A DNA stretch of 64,000 nucleotides from Lachnospiraceae bacterium (GTDB lineage: Bacteria; Bacillota; Clostridia; Lachnospirales; Lachnospiraceae): assembly GCA_017935565.1 (NCBI GenBank), contig JAGBHK010000008.1, positions 1 through 64,000 on the forward strand. Reading direction: 5' to 3'. The notes under the pieces were generated by a model that saw nothing but the letters and a program-made list of their open reading frames with translations, searched no databases and was not told the DNA's origin. The translations under genes were made by a program, and so were the position numbers. Positions 55,647-60,051 of this stretch are shown here, piece by piece. Within the stretch, counting starts at the first letter, position 1, and each line of letters begins with the position of its first letter.

Positions 55647-56009
55647 TTATTTTTCCCTATCAAATCCACTGATTTTATCAAATAAATCCAAATCGATTTT
55701 ACTCGTTTTATAGTACTTATCTTCATAAGATATTTTATATTCATCAATAATTACGATTTTATGTTCGTCATCATCATTAGAATATACAATTTCATATATC
55801 CAACCCTTAGTATTATCATTTTCGATTTCCTCACATTCCAAACCTTTGAGATAATTAATAATAGATTCAATATCTTCTGTATCTTTTACCTCTTTCTCGT
55901 TATTCTTCCATATAAGTTTCATCTTCTCTGAATCATCTTCTTTACTTGTACAAGCAAAAAAACAGCTCATAGAAATACATACCATAATTAAAACAATTAT
56001 TTTTTTCAT
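55647..56009 (-). CDS. Small lipoprotein of unknown function
   Basis: 120 residues with a lipoprotein signal peptide (MKKIIVLIMVCISMSCFFAC, lipobox FFAC at Cys20). The mature part is charged and has one beta/helical domain of about 90 residues (ESIINYLKGLECEEIEN..., IYEIVYSNDDDEHKIVIIDE), resembling small DUF5301-type lipoproteins. It is the last gene of the accessory operon, 57 bases after the ABC ATPase. By position it may act as immunity or substrate-binding partner (inference). Confidence 0.75.
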   Translation of the reverse strand: MKKIIVLIMVCISMSCFFACTSKEDDSEKMKLIWKNNEKEVKDTEDIESIINYLKGLECEEIENDNTKGWIYEIVYSNDDDEHKIVIIDEYKISYEDKYYKTSKIDLDLFDKISGFDREK

Positions 56010-56066
56010 AAAAACACCTAACCTTCCTTATGCACAAAGCACACTCGTAGCCACACAATACTTTAT

Positions 56067-56675
56067 TTACAGTTCAATGCACCTACTTCCAACCTGCTTA
56101 TACTCTTCAACATGCGTAACCAAAACTACCGTCTTTCCCTCTTTATTTAATTCAGAAAGTATCCCCATTACAATTTCAGAATTTTTTTTATCAAGGGAGC
56201 CCGTTGGCTCATCTGCTAAAATCACTTGACAATTTTTAACCATTAGACGTGCAAGTGCTACTCTTTGTTGCTCTCCACCTGAGAGTTTATATACTTTCGT
56301 ATTAAGTTTATCTATTAATCCAACCCTTTTTAATGCTTCTTCTATTGATACTGAATTTTTGCTTTTACACCTGACAAGCATTAAATTTTGTCGAACGGTT
56401 TTCCTATCAACCAATGCAAAATTTTGAAACAGAAAACCAACAACTTCTCTGTAATACTTCATTCTATTCTTGTGTTTGGTAACCTCAATATCATTTACAA
56501 CGATACTACCACAATCAACTGGTTCCAAACCGCCAATCATATTAAGCAAAGTGGTCTTTCCTGCACCACTTTCCCCAGAAAGCACTACGTATTCACCGTC
56601 AGTAATATCTAAATTATAGTTATCAAAAAGAACCTTTTCTTTAAATCGTTTGCTCAATCCTTTTATTTTTATCAT
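56067..56675 (-). CDS. ABC transporter ATP-binding protein (LolD/MacB type)
   Basis: 202 residues. Walker A SGESGAGKTTLLNMIGG, Q-loop FLFQNFALVD, signature LSGGEQQRVALARL, Walker B VILADEPTGSLD, and the switch His in VTHVEEY. ATG 56675 overlaps the permease stop by 4 bases (ATGA), so the two are coupled; a TTG two codons upstream is unlikely. It powers the permease, probably by mechanotransmission-type export or immunity rather than classical import. Confidence 0.93.
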   Translation of the reverse strand: MIKIKGLSKRFKEKVLFDNYNLDITDGEYVVLSGESGAGKTTLLNMIGGLEPVDCGSIVVNDIEVTKHKNRMKYYREVVGFLFQNFALVDRKTVRQNLMLVRCKSKNSVSIEEALKRVGLIDKLNTKVYKLSGGEQQRVALARLMVKNCQVILADEPTGSLDKKNSEIVMGILSELNKEGKTVVLVTHVEEYKQVGSRCIEL

Positions 56676-58651
56676 AAACAACCACCTTTTAATGTTTTAA
56701 TTACATTTTCATTTTCTTGTCTATATATACAAACACTCAAAATAATAATATCCAAAAAGATTAGTACTGCACCAATTGCCAAAATATTAAAAATTGATAC
56801 TGGAATTCCACTATACTTAATCCCACCTGTGTAATACTTCGTATATAAAACTGCTAATGTATCAAATACAAATGAAAATATATACATTTTTTTATATCTA
56901 ATAAACACATTGTAACCCAATGTTTTTTTTACAGCAATTTCGATTGAATCTGCAGTATACAATATCTGTACCAAAAGACGATTAACTATAATATAAATTA
57001 TAATCAAAATAACTATAATACCTATTTTAAACATAGCCATCCGTTGCAGTACAACAAGTTCATCTAAATATTTGTCATACGCATTTGTAACCACAACATT
57101 AATATTGTTGTCTGGATCAAGTTTCTTTACTTCTTCTGCGATTTCTTCTTCAGTACAATCCCAAAGAACCAGTTTAAACATTATGCCATACTGCACAGGA
57201 CTTTTAAACTCACATTTCCTGTAATCAGATATGTTATTTAAGACAATAATCGGATTTTTAGCTACACTCGTTTTCTCCAAAGCATCCTTTGAAATATAAC
57301 CTATTACCTCTGATTTTTTATATGGTAACATAACATATTCAGGTTCACTCTCGCCAACATACATTCTACGTGATATACTTTTCGCCTCTTCAATTGCCTG
57401 ATTTGACAATTCATCATTCTCATTATATATTATATATATCTTTTCTTTAAAATCATAGTCACTAAATTCTTTAATTCTATCTTTAATATATTCAACTGAA
57501 TATTTATTTGCAGATATAATATTTACTCCATTGTCACCAGCAGTATCATCCACAAAATAAATTAATTTTTTACTATTCAAATTATCTCTAAATAATTTTT
57601 CCTCATAATACCATAAATCATCTATAACTTCTCTCTTTCTAGCCTTCACAGTAACTGAGTTGTGATTCTTAAAATACGAATAATATTCTTCTGATTTCCT
57701 AAACTCATAATATTCCTTTACATCTCCCACGCAGCTGACAACTAATATAGTTATTATTGTAGTTGCCAATAGTTTCAATAAATAATTCAAAAAAACCAAA
57801 TCTTTTGAAATGATTGCATTAGACAAAACTTTTGAAATGTCAAAAAACACAATACTCACTTGCATAAATGCGCAAATTGCTCCCGCAACATATACCAATG
57901 TTCTAACCGAATTTATATTAAAATCGGTAATCTGAACATAACTAAATATATATCGTGCAATCTCAAAACTTCCGCATATCAAAAAAAACTCAATTGCAAT
58001 ATTTTTTAAAACAAGTATTTTAGTATTTGCTCCCAACGATATCTTAATTATATTTTCTTTTTTTTCAGTTTCTAATACATAATACGAGAACAAAAAAACA
58101 ACAAAAAGAAGTATCCCCCATATATATAACGAACTTCTTTGCGCCTGTATAAGCATATAATCTCCATTACCTTTAGAAATGTTTACATCACAAAACTGTG
58201 AAATATCCGAACGGAAATTGCTCACATTTCTACTTTCACCGTATACATATATCTCTGTTTTTTCAATTACTTTATCAAAATTGTTATCTGACAAATTTTC
58301 CAACGAATCATATTCTATATTTACAGTTCCTGATATAAAACCTTTATGTTTACCCGCAATCAAATACCTTTGTTTTTCCAACGTGTTTTTTAATTCTTCA
58401 GAACAAAAAACTATCATTTCGGAAGAATATGCGCTATTTATCTCATTTACAACAACACACAACTCCGTTTTGCTCTTTTTGGCATATTCATTTAACATAA
58501 TAATATTTTCTTTATTCTTTTCATCTCTATTATTTATATCCAATACACTTAGATCGGAAAAACTAGAAATATAATCAATGTAAAACTCATTTGAAATTGT
58601 AAATCCTATTATCATCAGAATAATAATGATTAAAAATTGTACTTTTCTCAT
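56672..58651 (-). CDS. ABC permease resembling bacteriocin-associated integral membrane proteins
   Basis: 659 residues with an N-terminal membrane helix (about 5-22), a soluble outside segment, membrane helices near 170-190, 210-232, 240-262 and 285-305, a second soluble domain (about 310-540) and three helices at the C terminus. The arrangement and partner resemble the DUF1430/TIGR01654 membrane proteins found next to lactococcin-972-like bacteriocins, and MacB/FtsX permeases. The FtsX-type conserved helix is visible as YYVLETEKKENIIKISLGAN. Identification as immunity or exporter is inference; the family needs a profile search. Upstream genes encode two secreted or anchored proteins. Confidence 0.75.
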   Translation of the reverse strand: MRKVQFLIIIILMIIGFTISNEFYIDYISSFSDLSVLDINNRDEKNKENIIMLNEYAKKSKTELCVVVNEINSAYSSEMIVFCSEELKNTLEKQRYLIAGKHKGFISGTVNIEYDSLENLSDNNFDKVIEKTEIYVYGESRNVSNFRSDISQFCDVNISKGNGDYMLIQAQRSSLYIWGILLFVVFLFSYYVLETEKKENIIKISLGANTKILVLKNIAIEFFLICGSFEIARYIFSYVQITDFNINSVRTLVYVAGAICAFMQVSIVFFDISKVLSNAIISKDLVFLNYLLKLLATTIITILVVSCVGDVKEYYEFRKSEEYYSYFKNHNSVTVKARKREVIDDLWYYEEKLFRDNLNSKKLIYFVDDTAGDNGVNIISANKYSVEYIKDRIKEFSDYDFKEKIYIIYNENDELSNQAIEEAKSISRRMYVGESEPEYVMLPYKKSEVIGYISKDALEKTSVAKNPIIVLNNISDYRKCEFKSPVQYGIMFKLVLWDCTEEEIAEEVKKLDPDNNINVVVTNAYDKYLDELVVLQRMAMFKIGIIVILIIIYIIVNRLLVQILYTADSIEIAVKKTLGYNVFIRYKKMYIFSFVFDTLAVLYTKYYTGGIKYSGIPVSIFNILAIGAVLIFLDIIILSVCIYRQENENVIKTLKGGCL

Positions 58652-58671
58652 ATCCTACCTGCATAATATAA

Positions 58672-58773
58672 TTAATTTATTTCCCACATTTTATTCATTT
58701 CTTCATATACTTCGGCTATATCATCCTTATATTCTTCAAAAAATCTTTCTTCCTCTTCTGTCGGCTCATAATA
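58672..58773 (-). pseudogene. Possible readthrough extension of the 58774-59184 gene, after an amber codon
   Basis: After the TAG at 58774-58776 the frame stays open for 33 codons to a TAA at 58672-58674. It encodes a Glu/Tyr-rich helical peptide (YYEPTEEEERF... ending NKMWEIN) of protein-like composition, without its own start near the beginning. It ends 20 bases before the permease ATG, leaving just room for its AGG site. Either the TAG is a nonsense mutation that trims the upstream protein from about 170 to 136 residues, or it is read through, or the resemblance to coding sequence is accidental. Confidence 0.5.
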
Positions 58774-59184
58774 CTACTCCATATTTTCGTCAAGAATAAT
58801 TGTTCCCATCAACTCTTGTTTACCATTTAGACCTGTTTCATCCATCACCATTTTATATATTTTGACATAAATCTCATATCCATCTAATTTAGGAAAAATA
58901 AGCATAGATACTTTGGGAATATCTTCAGTTCTTACTTCACCTCTACTTATAGACAAATTTCCAGCGTATGATAAATATTGTGGTAAAAAAGCACCATATA
59001 TATATCTTCCTTTTTTACCTCTTTCACCCACAAACAAAGAATAGTCACCATCCCCTATATACTCCAATGGTTCACAAAACGGACGCCATCTAATATAAGT
59101 GAATACACTCCAAAATATATTGTACACTATAAACAAAACTATAATCCCTATTAGAATCTTAATTTTCAAACTTAATTTTTTCAT
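58774..59184 (-). CDS. Membrane-anchored small protein, amber stop
   Basis: 136 residues. Signal anchor at about 8-30 (IKILIGIIVLFIVYNIFWSV), then an exposed beta-rich domain with no cysteines paired to a known motif (GDGDYSLFVGERGKKGRYIY, LPQYLSYAGNLSISR, KVSMLIFPKLDGYEIYV). Ends ILDENME at a TAG, after which the same frame remains open for 33 further codons. AGGATGG precedes the ATG. Lies between the secreted 145-residue protein and the ABC permease; family unrecognised. A role in processing, export or self-protection is possible from context only. Confidence 0.7.
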   Translation of the reverse strand: MKKLSLKIKILIGIIVLFIVYNIFWSVFTYIRWRPFCEPLEYIGDGDYSLFVGERGKKGRYIYGAFLPQYLSYAGNLSISRGEVRTEDIPKVSMLIFPKLDGYEIYVKIYKMVMDETGLNGKQELMGTIILDENME

Positions 59185-59256
59185 TTTAACACCATCCTAT
59201 TGTTCCCTCTGCAACCATTTATACTCCCCTACTACTATTCAATAAATTAACTATTA

Positions 59257-59694
59257 TTAATCATAAATATGTTTTACAGTAAATTTCCAATCCACATCTG
59301 TTCCTGTATTTTTGATTGAATACTCCTTTGATACTTCACCATCCTGCATCCATGGTGTGTACACATCATCATACGAAGCATTTACAAGTCTTCCTTGGCA
59401 CTCCATTCCAAAAGACACTCCACCAACTTCTTTCATTAAATCCTTATTACCAAATGCACCATCTTTAAAACCTACATATGCCTGATATCCATATTCAAAA
59501 CCAGCGATAATGATTTCTCCTTCGACAGGTTCATACCAAGATTCATCTTTACCCCATTTTTTATCAGCTGATTCCTCACCAACATCACCCGGATCAACCC
59601 AAACATATGCAGAATATTCTCCTGCTGATGCCATTCCTACCATACCCAATGTTGCAACTACAACAGTTACTAAAGTTACTAATTTTTTCTTCAT
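59257..59694 (-). CDS. Secreted protein of unknown family controlled by a c-di-GMP riboswitch
   Basis: 145 residues. Clear signal peptide (MKKKLVTLVTVVVATLGMVG, cleavage near ASA-GEY, residue 24). The mature about 120 residues are acidic and aromatic-rich (YSAYVWVDPGDVGEESADKK, YEPVEGEIIIAGFEYGYQAY, VGFKDGAF) with one Cys (GMECQGRLV) and a beta-rich end (DVDWKFTVKHIYD). No sortase or choline-binding motif. GGAG lies 9 bases before the ATG. The leader contains a c-di-GMP-I riboswitch and terminator. Followed by an anchored protein and an ABC transporter. It could be an adhesin, matrix component or bacteriocin-like effector; I do not recognise it. Confidence 0.8.
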   Translation of the reverse strand: MKKKLVTLVTVVVATLGMVGMASAGEYSAYVWVDPGDVGEESADKKWGKDESWYEPVEGEIIIAGFEYGYQAYVGFKDGAFGNKDLMKEVGGVSFGMECQGRLVNASYDDVYTPWMQDGEVSKEYSIKNTGTDVDWKFTVKHIYD

Positions 59695-59723
59695 TTTGTC
59701 GTACTCCTTTATATACTTATTTG

Positions 59724-59752
59724 TTTACACATATATAAAAAAGTAGTATACT
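59724..59752 (+). promoter_or_regulatory. Plus-strand sigma-A promoter inside the riboswitch leader region
   Basis: TTTACA (59724-59729), 17-base spacer, TATACT (59747-59752) on the plus strand. It points away from the 59257-59694 gene and toward the hairpin at 59790-59826, so it may produce a short RNA opposite the riboswitch leader. The -10 sequence is palindromic (AGTATACT), but on the minus strand no good -35 is spaced from it. Confidence 0.65.
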
Positions 59753-59758
59753 ATCCAT

Positions 59759-59836
59759 GGCACTTATTATATATATGTGTCAGTCCTTGGGCTCTGGAGA
59801 TTTTGTCGCGAATTTTCTCCAGAGCCTCTTTTTATA
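59759..59836 (+). ncRNA. Candidate small antisense RNA with terminator
   Basis: Predicted transcript of about 78 bases from the promoter at 59724-59752, ending in an 11-bp perfect stem GGCTCTGGAGA / TCTCCAGAGCC (59790-59800 with 59816-59826) followed by TCTTTTTATA. It would be antisense to the leader between the riboswitch and the secreted-protein gene. The stem also exists in the minus-strand leader but has no U tract there. Transcription has not been shown. Confidence 0.5.
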
Positions 59837-59871
59837 TATAATACTCATAAAAGTATAATATATCGAAATAT

Positions 59872-59913
59872 AAACAAATAAAAAGGTTGCAATATTTCAT
59901 CAATATTGCAACC
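59872..59913 (-). terminator. Riboswitch expression-platform terminator
   Basis: 12-bp stem GGTTGCAATATT / AATATTGCAACC (59885-59896 with 59902-59913), followed on the minus strand by TTTTTATTTG. Its 5' arm GGTTGC is also the conserved 3' element of the aptamer, so ligand binding and terminator formation compete. Confidence 0.9.
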
Positions 59914-60005
59914 GAACTATCATAATAACCATTAACCATCCCAATTAATCATTACTTTAGACTTCTAGCTTTGCGTCCCTACATTTCTATAAGTTTGCTA
60001 ACATT
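59908..60005 (-). ncRNA. c-di-GMP-I (GEMM) riboswitch
   Basis: On the minus strand the leader matches the GEMM-I aptamer: GCAAAC (P2 region), a stem with GAAA tetraloop (CTTATAGAAATGTA), then the hallmark GGGACGCAAAGC (59968-59979), GTCTAA, a P3 helix, and ATGATAG..CGGTTGC at the 3' end. The segment from CAAAC to GCAAAGC has the same length and layout as the Vibrio Vc2 aptamer. A sigma-A promoter lies just upstream and a terminator overlaps the 3' end, so c-di-GMP is expected to control transcription of the 59694-to-55647 operon. Whether it turns the operon on or off is not settled by inspection. Confidence 0.92.
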
Positions 60006-60022
60006 ATTCATACACTTTGCAT

Positions 60023-60051
60023 ATTATACCCCCCCCGACAAATTTTGTCAA
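60023..60051 (-). promoter_or_regulatory. Consensus promoter with G8 spacer, driving the riboswitch operon
   Basis: TTGACA (60046-60051), 17-base spacer, TATAAT (60023-60028) on the minus strand, a perfect match. The spacer contains a run of eight G (60029-60036 as C on plus). Homopolymer length change would shift the spacing away from the 17-base optimum, so this could be phase-variable. Lies directly after the stop of the NlpC/P60 gene. Confidence 0.93.

What the first reader, a model, noticed from the sequence alone, without database searches (positions are those of the whole stretch)
55647..60051. c-di-GMP-I riboswitch operon encoding an unrecognised secreted protein and a bacteriocin-type ABC transporter
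A promoter, GEMM-I aptamer and overlapping terminator lead into five same-strand genes: a secreted 145-residue protein, an anchored 136-residue protein, a 659-residue ABC permease that resembles bacteriocin-associated membrane proteins, its ATPase, and a lipoprotein. I recognise none of the three small exported proteins. c-di-GMP riboswitches in Clostridia usually control motility, adhesion or matrix; a transport/antagonism-like cassette under one would be unusual. The seen part is the riboswitch and gene order; the biological role is inference.
Basis: partly seen in the sequence, partly recalled or inferred. Interest (0 to 1): 0.85.

Follow-up and report, generated by a model that had tools for sequence, protein, structure and literature searches.

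The report
c-di-GMP-switched bacteriocin-type operon, antisense brake
A gut bacterium appears to switch on a bacteriocin-like secretion operon when the 'settle down' signal c-di-GMP is high, and a small antisense RNA gene hidden in the operon's leader, repeated at similar loci in related bacteria, probably holds it in check.

Summary
A c-di-GMP-I riboswitch (RF01051, 59 bits), whose terminator uses the aptamer's own 3' strand, precedes a secreted 145-aa orphan, a small membrane protein, a permease and an ATPase. A leave-out profile (1.5e-101) places the permease in a family most of whose scanned members match the bacteriocin-associated TIGR01654/DUF1430. A second permease cassette in the genome also has its own c-di-GMP-I switch.

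Between switch and secreted gene, on the opposite strand, lies a predicted antisense RNA gene: promoter TTTACA-N17-TATACT, about 70 nt, terminator. A model of it finds 24 loci in 11 of 395 related genomes. The first ORF starts 26-38 nt away in 18 of 24, and 11 of 24 have a c-di-GMP-I switch within 300 nt upstream. The terminator stem covaries (9 of 10 pairs). Rfam has no family for it, and nine literature searches listed no description.

Best reading: c-di-GMP turns on a bacteriocin-type cassette restrained by a cis-antisense RNA. No transcript or killing activity was measured.

The parts
60023..60051 (-). sense promoter TTGACA-N17-TATAAT
   Evidence: 12 of 12 consensus positions
59904..60009 (-). 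c-di-GMP-I riboswitch aptamer (RF01051)
   Evidence: 59 bits, gathering 35
59885..59913 (-). intrinsic terminator; its 5' arm is the aptamer's 3' end (ON-type platform)
59724..59752 (+). antisense promoter TTTACA-N17-TATACT, similar hexamers and spacing at the other loci
59759..59833 (+). predicted cis-antisense RNA of about 70-75 nt (start inferred from the promoter), complementary to the 5' leader of the secreted-protein mRNA
   Evidence: model R1 match 59724-59827, 96.6 bits (the window is one of the 3 model sequences); transcription is inference
59789..59827 (+). terminator hairpin of the antisense RNA; T tract follows to 59833
   Evidence: 12 bp; covariation over 23 loci; T tract in 22 of 23 on this strand, 0 of 23 on the other by a fixed-offset check
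59257..59694 (-). secreted 145-aa orphan protein, in the bacteriocin position
   Evidence: signal-like N-terminus (sequence); no Pfam/NCBIfam family near a cut-off; no convincing homologue in 395 genomes
58774..59184 (-). small membrane protein (136 aa to an in-frame TAG); similar proteins in four related cassettes; immunity/accessory candidate
56672..58651 (-). 659-aa permease of the bacteriocin-associated (TIGR01654/DUF1430-related) family
56067..56675 (-). 202-aa ABC ATPase, closest to TIGR03608 (lactococcin 972 group)
   Evidence: 235.2 bits, cut-off 254.85
55647..56009 (-). 120-aa lipoprotein, possible but unsupported fifth gene
   Evidence: co-oriented, no family above cut-off

Best explanation
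This is a c-di-GMP-induced bacteriocin-type operon with a built-in antisense brake. At low c-di-GMP the aptamer's 3' strand forms a terminator and transcription stops. At high c-di-GMP the folded aptamer holds that strand, the terminator cannot form, and the leader, the secreted 145-aa protein, the small membrane protein and the permease/ATPase are transcribed (ON switch; predicted from sequence). The secreted protein leaves through Sec and acts outside, most likely on competitors; the ABC transporter and the small membrane protein protect the producer or handle the protein (inferred from the lactococcin 972 family). From the opposite strand of the leader a promoter, taken to be constitutive, makes an RNA of about 70 nt, ended by its own terminator, that is fully complementary to the mRNA leader upstream of the ribosome site. 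It pairs with leaky mRNA and lowers its translation or stability, so only strong c-di-GMP-driven transcription gives product. Shown by computation: aptamer match, platform geometry, family of the permease, conservation and covariation of the antisense element, its association with bacteriocin-type loci. Inferred: c-di-GMP binding, transcription of the antisense RNA, its effect, and the antibacterial activity.
For: RF01051 match. Strict ON-type platform in 6 of 9 switches of this genome (the window's among them), 20 of 23 tested of the same genus (24 found; one dropped because its contig ends), 0 of 22 from other genera in the permease-bearing sample and 5 of 9 in other genera that carry the antisense element; shuffles 0.6-1.6%. 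The permease cassette occurs twice in the genome, both times under its own c-di-GMP-I switch. Leave-out profile hits the window permease at 1.5e-101; relatives match TIGR01654 and DUF1430. Secreted proteins of one pattern occur at 11 of 23 loci scanned (two identical); two of ten of them match Lactococcin_972 below threshold. Antisense gene: 3 of 32 genus leaders by promoter+terminator scan, all three in secreted-protein plus ABC cassettes, against 5 of 1920 shuffled leaders. Model R1: 11 of 395 genomes, 24 loci; over 23 of them the stem is paired in 95.9% of 220 cells, 9 of 10 pairs with double changes, 30 such cells against 5.5 in shuffles; T tract on the antisense side in 22 of 23, on the other side in 0 of 23. 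First ORF at +26 to +38 in 18 of 24 loci, RF01051 within 300 nt in 11 of 24. Two C39 peptide exporters scanned at element loci score over the TIGR01193 cut-off.
Against: No transcript, binding or killing data. The secreted protein matches no bacteriocin family, and the profile of relatives' secreted proteins scores it only 2.9 bits. One relative's secreted protein finds the lactococcin 972 structure 2lgn only at E 0.79, and the family profile does not list it. The secreted proteins of the window and of C38 are not detectably alike. AlphaFold models were unusable (pLDDT 40.8 and 37.9). The window permease itself does not reach TIGR01654. Outside this genome, none of the permease places has an RF01051 match beside it (one weak hit, G022, was checked instead). 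Of the 24 antisense loci, 13 have no switch within 300 nt (2 of these lack upstream DNA), so the two parts are separable. Only 15 of 24 show an ABC/C39 motif nearby by a crude scan, and 2 of 24 show no first ORF. Promoter-like matches are common here (40 found, 33.4 expected). The C32 cassette has no secreted gene or antisense element in front. The switch of one antisense-bearing genus leader (G006 C7) fails the strict ON test, as do those of three of the six element loci of other genera with a switch within 300 nt. The alignment behind the covariation count was fitted to the model's structure.
Confidence: 0.6

Rival explanations
1. The leader element works on the sense strand: two conserved hairpins in the mRNA that stabilise it or control ribosome access; the antisense promoter is incidental.
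For: Both hairpins also form in the predicted sense RNA; loops carry palindromic runs at several loci (CCTAGG/CCATGG, TTCGCGAA).
Against: A T tract follows the stem on the antisense side in 22 of 23 and on the other side in 0 of 23; -35 and -10 hexamers with about 17-nt spacing are kept in most rows.
Confidence: 0.2
2. The cassette is a c-di-GMP-controlled surface or matrix system: the secreted protein is a structural or adhesive protein and the transporter removes or detects envelope-active compounds.
For: Known c-di-GMP switches control adhesins and motility; other switches of this genome precede a GH16 enzyme, a serpin and an RTX protein.
Against: Permease/ATPase relatives sit next to secreted proteins with faint lactococcin 972 similarity, and the same leader element precedes double-glycine-type peptides, some near C39 exporters.
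Confidence: 0.22
3. The switch is an OFF switch, as class I switches in Clostridioides difficile are said to be, so the operon is made at low c-di-GMP.
For: Class I switches in C. difficile are described as OFF switches (passage of PMC11477304).
Against: One C. difficile class I target rises over 30-fold with c-di-GMP (passage). Here the terminator 5' arm is the aptamer's own 3' strand, so bound aptamer and terminator should exclude each other; the two C19 switches that lack this overlap have separate downstream terminators.
Confidence: 0.1
4. A type I toxin-antitoxin module: the secreted protein is an intracellular toxin and the antisense RNA its antitoxin.
For: Predicted antisense RNA over the leader; C. 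difficile prophage antitoxin RNAs lie behind c-di-GMP-I switches.
Against: The product is 145 aa with a signal-like sequence and a neighbouring transporter, not a short membrane peptide; homologous elements precede exported proteins and peptides.
Confidence: 0.08

Closest known systems
Lactococcin 972-type cassettes (lcn972-orf2-orf3; scbABC of pneumococcus)
   Same: secreted protein with a large permease and an ATPase of the TIGR01654/TIGR03608 kind
   Different: secreted protein not recognisable as Lactococcin_972; extra small membrane protein; c-di-GMP switch and predicted antisense RNA, where scbABC is under competence control (passages)
c-di-GMP-I (GEMM) riboswitches of Clostridia
   Same: RF01051 aptamer with an intrinsic terminator
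   Different: ON-type geometry by strand sharing between aptamer and terminator; target is a bacteriocin-type cassette, while targets listed for C. difficile include flagella, an adhesion protein, PPEP-1, an SH3 protein, small proteins and antitoxin RNAs (passages)
Type I toxin-antitoxin RNAs behind c-di-GMP-I switches in C. difficile prophages (RCd11, RCd12)
   Same: a c-di-GMP-I switch and a cis-antisense RNA in one locus
   Different: there the switch lies in front of the antitoxin RNA, which also has a second, stronger promoter (passage); here the switch drives the putative effector mRNA and the antisense RNA has its own promoter
Class II double-glycine bacteriocins with C39 exporters (PF10439, TIGR01193)
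   Same: the same leader element precedes such peptides at several relatives' loci
   Different: the window cassette has a signal-peptide protein and another transporter type

Membership tests
c-di-GMP-I riboswitch RF01051 | covariance match over gathering score | tested here: met
   59 bits against 35
c-di-GMP-I riboswitch RF01051 | binds c-di-GMP | not testable with these tools
   needs in-line probing
TIGR01654 bact_immun_7tm permease | score over curated cut-off | tested here: not met
   window permease not listed at E<=1; C32 paralogue 1.4e-9 but 35.8 bits against a cut-off of 189.35
TIGR01654 bact_immun_7tm permease | homology through intermediate members | tested here: met
   at E<=1, 16 of 24 relatives match TIGR01654 and 18 of 24 DUF1430; leave-out profile 1.5e-101
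TIGR03608 L_ocin_972_ABC ATPase | score over curated cut-off | tested here: not met
   235.2 bits, cut-off 254.85, best of 207 families
Lactococcin_972 bacteriocin PF09683 | sequence match of the secreted protein | tested here: not met
   no match for the window protein; two of ten relatives subthreshold, 15 and 11.7 bits against 22
Lactococcin_972 bacteriocin PF09683 | beta-sandwich fold | tested here: inconclusive
   AlphaFold pLDDT 40.8 and 37.9
Lactococcin_972 bacteriocin PF09683 | lipid II binding, killing | not testable with these tools
   wet-lab assay
Type I toxin-antitoxin | antisense RNA overlapping the effector mRNA | tested here: inconclusive
   gene predicted from promoter, terminator and covariation; transcript not shown
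Type I toxin-antitoxin | short hydrophobic intracellular toxin | tested here: not met
   145-aa protein with a signal-like N-terminus and adjacent transporter
Known Rfam RNA family for the leader element | match over gathering score | tested here: not met
   only RF01051 in the window; on the leader the best others are mir-7918, 21.5 bits against 80, and Srn266, 22 against 63

The most novel reading that the evidence does not exclude
A family of cis-antisense RNAs, not described in Rfam or in the papers searched, sits in the leaders of bacteriocin and bacteriocin-like exported-protein genes across nine genera of one family of gut Clostridia (Lachnospiraceae by the titles of two relatives), and 11 of 24 of these leaders also carry a c-di-GMP-I riboswitch, ON-type in 7 of these 11 by the strict test. 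Chemical warfare would thus be tied to the sessile state and held below a threshold by antisense RNA; palindromic loops could let one RNA act on several loci.
Probability: 0.5. Interest if true: 0.88.

Novelty: new variant of a known kind. Interest (0 to 1): 0.8.

Why it matters
c-di-GMP in Clostridia is known for motility, adhesion and matrix. Switches that turn ON bacteriocin-type loci would link the sessile lifestyle directly to antagonism. The antisense element is a sequence tag for finding bacteriocin-like loci whose products are orphans, such as the 145-aa protein here, and makes a threshold mechanism directly testable with reporters.

Tried and rejected
Single-sequence and four-sequence AlphaFold models of secreted proteins were unusable, so no fold search was run. 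The profile of relatives' secreted proteins did not recognise the window protein. The short pattern TAGTATAC-CTTTTTT first used for the leader element occurs in 47 of 195 genomes, and the reversed control looks similarly frequent by eye (not summed), so I dropped it in favour of the covariance model. A looser terminator-overlap scan had a high shuffle background and was replaced by the strict one. I first read the ON platform as special to this genus; one search shows it in 5 of 9 switches of other genera that carry the element, so that claim is dropped. I first read the element as two sense hairpins and changed to an antisense gene after the + strand promoter match. A defence-system scan gave only ATPase hits. 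An exact stretch of the element was not found in viral contigs. rpsO was found in 5 of 7 genus genomes: a switch with other genes lies between NlpC/P60 and rpsO in G005, while G002, G003, G004 and G006 have no insertion there, so no common origin is claimed. A hand-made stem table overstates compensatory changes; I rely, whose alignment was itself fitted to the structure.

Limits of the counts: the 31 genomes are those with the permease plus the genus, not a random draw; 46 switches were found, 24 in the genus (23 tested, one dropped because its contig ends) and 22 elsewhere (all tested; two look identical). One search used stricter filters that lose weak matches. The signal/GG-leader classes and ABC motif are crude pattern tests; the opposite-strand T-tract check uses a fixed offset. 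Model R1 was built from three loci including the window; 19 of the 24 loci were first found by it. The partial match at G006 C38a was left out of the 23-row alignment.
Full report
Observation. The window carries one Rfam match, RF01051 (c-di-GMP-I), at 59904-60009 (-), 59 bits against a gathering score of 35. A 12-of-12 promoter lies before it and a 12-bp terminator (59913-59885) overlaps its 3' end. The ATPase start is best placed at 56675, overlapping the permease stop.

Cassette identity. Pfam and NCBIfam give no family near a cut-off for the secreted protein, the 136-aa protein, the permease or the lipoprotein. The ATPase's best NCBIfam match is TIGR03608, lactococcin 972 group, 235.2 bits with a cut-off of 254.85. 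The same genome holds a second permease/ATPase cassette at C32, also with its own c-di-GMP-I switch. By position alone, a crude estimate that both permease operons sit under a switch is about 2e-6. A profile of five permeases finds matches in 24 of 397 genomes of the family, this one included. Among 24 aligned permeases, 16 match TIGR01654 (best 7.2e-16) and 18 match DUF1430 (best 1.1e-8) at E<=1; the window member matches neither. A profile built without the window and C32 members scores the window permease at 1.5e-101, against nothing below E 0.1 among the other ORFs of a 93-ORF set. At relatives' loci a secreted protein of one pattern (YG[YF]N or CGYNT) lies near the permease, 11 sequences from 23 loci scanned, two identical; two of ten scanned match Lactococcin_972 below threshold. 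A single such protein finds the lactococcin 972 structure only at E 0.79 and the profile does not list it. A small membrane protein also recurs in the four relatives aligned. The window's secreted protein is an orphan: in 395 genomes the next best E-value is 0.003, inside longer ORFs, and it is not detectably like the C38 secreted protein.

Lactococcin 972 background. In the passages I read (PMC11796350) these cassettes have a bacteriocin, a predicted immunity protein and a transporter, with the functions of the last two not verified; the family is said to act through lipid II. In one search (PMC4055356, passages) orf2-orf3 are called putative immunity genes. So the roles given here to the permease, ATPase and small membrane protein are inference.

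The switch is probably ON. In a strict test the terminator's 5' arm is the aptamer's 3' strand in 6 of 9 switches of this genome and 20 of 23 tested of the genus (24 found), but in 0 of 22 switches from other genera of the permease-bearing sample, with shuffle rates of 0.6-1.6% (Fisher 5e-10). A later sample, nine switches at loci fetched for the antisense element in other genera, gives 5 of 9. So the geometry is not confined to this genus. The two C19 switches without the overlap (one before a GH16 enzyme) have separate downstream terminators; the C19 serpin switch also failed the strict test. C. difficile class I switches are described as OFF, though one target rises with c-di-GMP.

Regulon. 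In this genome the nine switches precede: the window cassette; the C32 cassette; a secreted protein with two FtsX permeases and an ATPase (C38); at C41, one switch before 159- and 160-aa proteins and two SUKH-family proteins and a second before a 146-aa protein and a 2349-aa RTX protein; at C11 a 160-aa protein like those of C41 by eye; a GH16 enzyme; an unclear site; and a serpin with a similar gene behind it. In the sister genome G006 they precede, among others, two secreted-protein plus ABC fusion cassettes, an 86-aa double-glycine-type peptide, a 1783-aa RHS-repeat protein, and a locus with an Imm30 protein. Other switches of the genus precede surface proteins or unclassified genes, so antagonism is one theme, not the only one. 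The genes behind the 22 switches from other genera were read by eye only; I recognised no bacteriocin-type cassette there, and three had no ORF in the DNA held.

The antisense gene. The gap of about 210 nt between switch and secreted gene holds two hairpins. Comparison with the C38 leader and the + strand promoter match suggested an antisense transcription unit: TTTACA-N17-TATACT, about 70 nt, a 12-bp hairpin and a T tract. A promoter+terminator scan of 32 leaders of the genus finds it in 3, all in secreted-protein plus ABC cassettes, against 5 of 1920 dinucleotide-shuffled leaders. By eye it is also in the G006 C17 leader, and the model finds a partial copy in the leader of the 86-aa peptide.

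A covariance model from three loci (window, G006 C7, G006 C17) finds 25 places in 11 of 395 genomes from 9 genera; one is the opposite strand of another, leaving 24 loci, 19 of them new. In the combined table the first ORF begins 26-38 nt from the element in 18 of 24 loci; by crude patterns 7 first ORFs look like double-glycine peptides, 15 like signal or membrane proteins, and 2 loci show none; an ABC or C39 motif lies within 6.5 kb in 15. RF01051 lies within 300 nt upstream on the coding strand in 11 of 24 (6 of the 19 new loci) and at 561 nt in one more; 2 loci lack upstream DNA. Two C39 exporters scanned score 702 and 699 bits to TIGR01193 (cut-off 523.85), and two of six peptides scanned match Bacteriocin_IIc below cut-off. 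Over 23 rows the terminator stem is paired in 95.9% of 220 cells, 9 of 10 pairs have changes on both sides, and 30 such cells compare with 5.5 in shuffles, 0 of 500 reaching it. A T tract follows the stem on the antisense strand in 22 of 23 and on the other strand in 0 of 23. Rfam has no family for it (at gathering scores the new loci gave only RF01051 and a tRNA).

Mechanism. The antisense RNA would be complementary to the leader ending about 65 nt before the secreted gene's start, so it could block ribosome access or expose the mRNA to double-strand cleavage. With a steady antisense supply and c-di-GMP-driven mRNA, the output would be thresholded. The palindromic loops (CCATGG or CCTAGG; TTCGCGAA in many loci) are plausible pairing starts. 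All of this paragraph is inference.

Literature. Searches for c-di-GMP riboswitches with bacteriocins, lantibiotics, toxin/immunity terms, RHS, Lachnospiraceae and downstream genes, and for antisense RNA or riboswitch with bacteriocin and Lachnospiraceae, returned no paper whose listing describes this link. I read passages only, of PMC11796350, PMC4055356, PMC3649979, PMC11477304, PMC6200980 and PMC3766115. The library is open-licence only, so absence is weak evidence.

Source organism. Two same-genus genomes correspond, by equal contig lengths, to goat-gut Lachnospiraceae metagenome-assembled genomes by record title; the window's genome itself is unnamed, 2.48 Mb in 45 contigs, 81% complete.

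Noticed in passing
window 58672-58776 (-): The 136-aa membrane gene stops at an in-frame TAG and the frame stays open for 33 more codons to a TAA, over the region where relatives have their C-terminal stretch; truncation, recoding or assembly error.
   Followed up: partly
L177 9037-9145 (-), own genome C10: A third copy of the antisense element in this genome, before a 135-aa exported-looking protein with further membrane proteins and an ATPase, without an RF01051 match in the fetched stretch.
   Followed up: partly
L027 1902-12470 (-): Two c-di-GMP-I switches at C41 of this genome, one before two SUKH-family proteins, one before a 2349-aa RTX-repeat protein.
   Followed up: partly
L100 2545-2636 (-): G005 has a c-di-GMP-I switch with other cargo in the same NlpC/P60-rpsO interval as the window; four sister genomes have nothing there.
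   Followed up: partly
L024 3764-3845 (+): A c-di-GMP-I switch 75 nt after the GH16 gene with no clear gene behind it on its strand.
   Followed up: no
L053 upstream of the permease: In G123 the small membrane protein appears split into 119-aa and 70-aa ORFs.
   Followed up: no
L064 195-1184 (+): Two c-di-GMP-I switches flank an ORF that looks like an IS200-type transposase (label recalled) in G002.
   Followed up: no
L062 and L064: Switches precede genes that look like PP2C phosphatase and Ser/Thr kinase in G006, and a 1743-aa surface protein then a PP2C-like gene in G002 (enzyme labels recalled, not searched).
   Followed up: no
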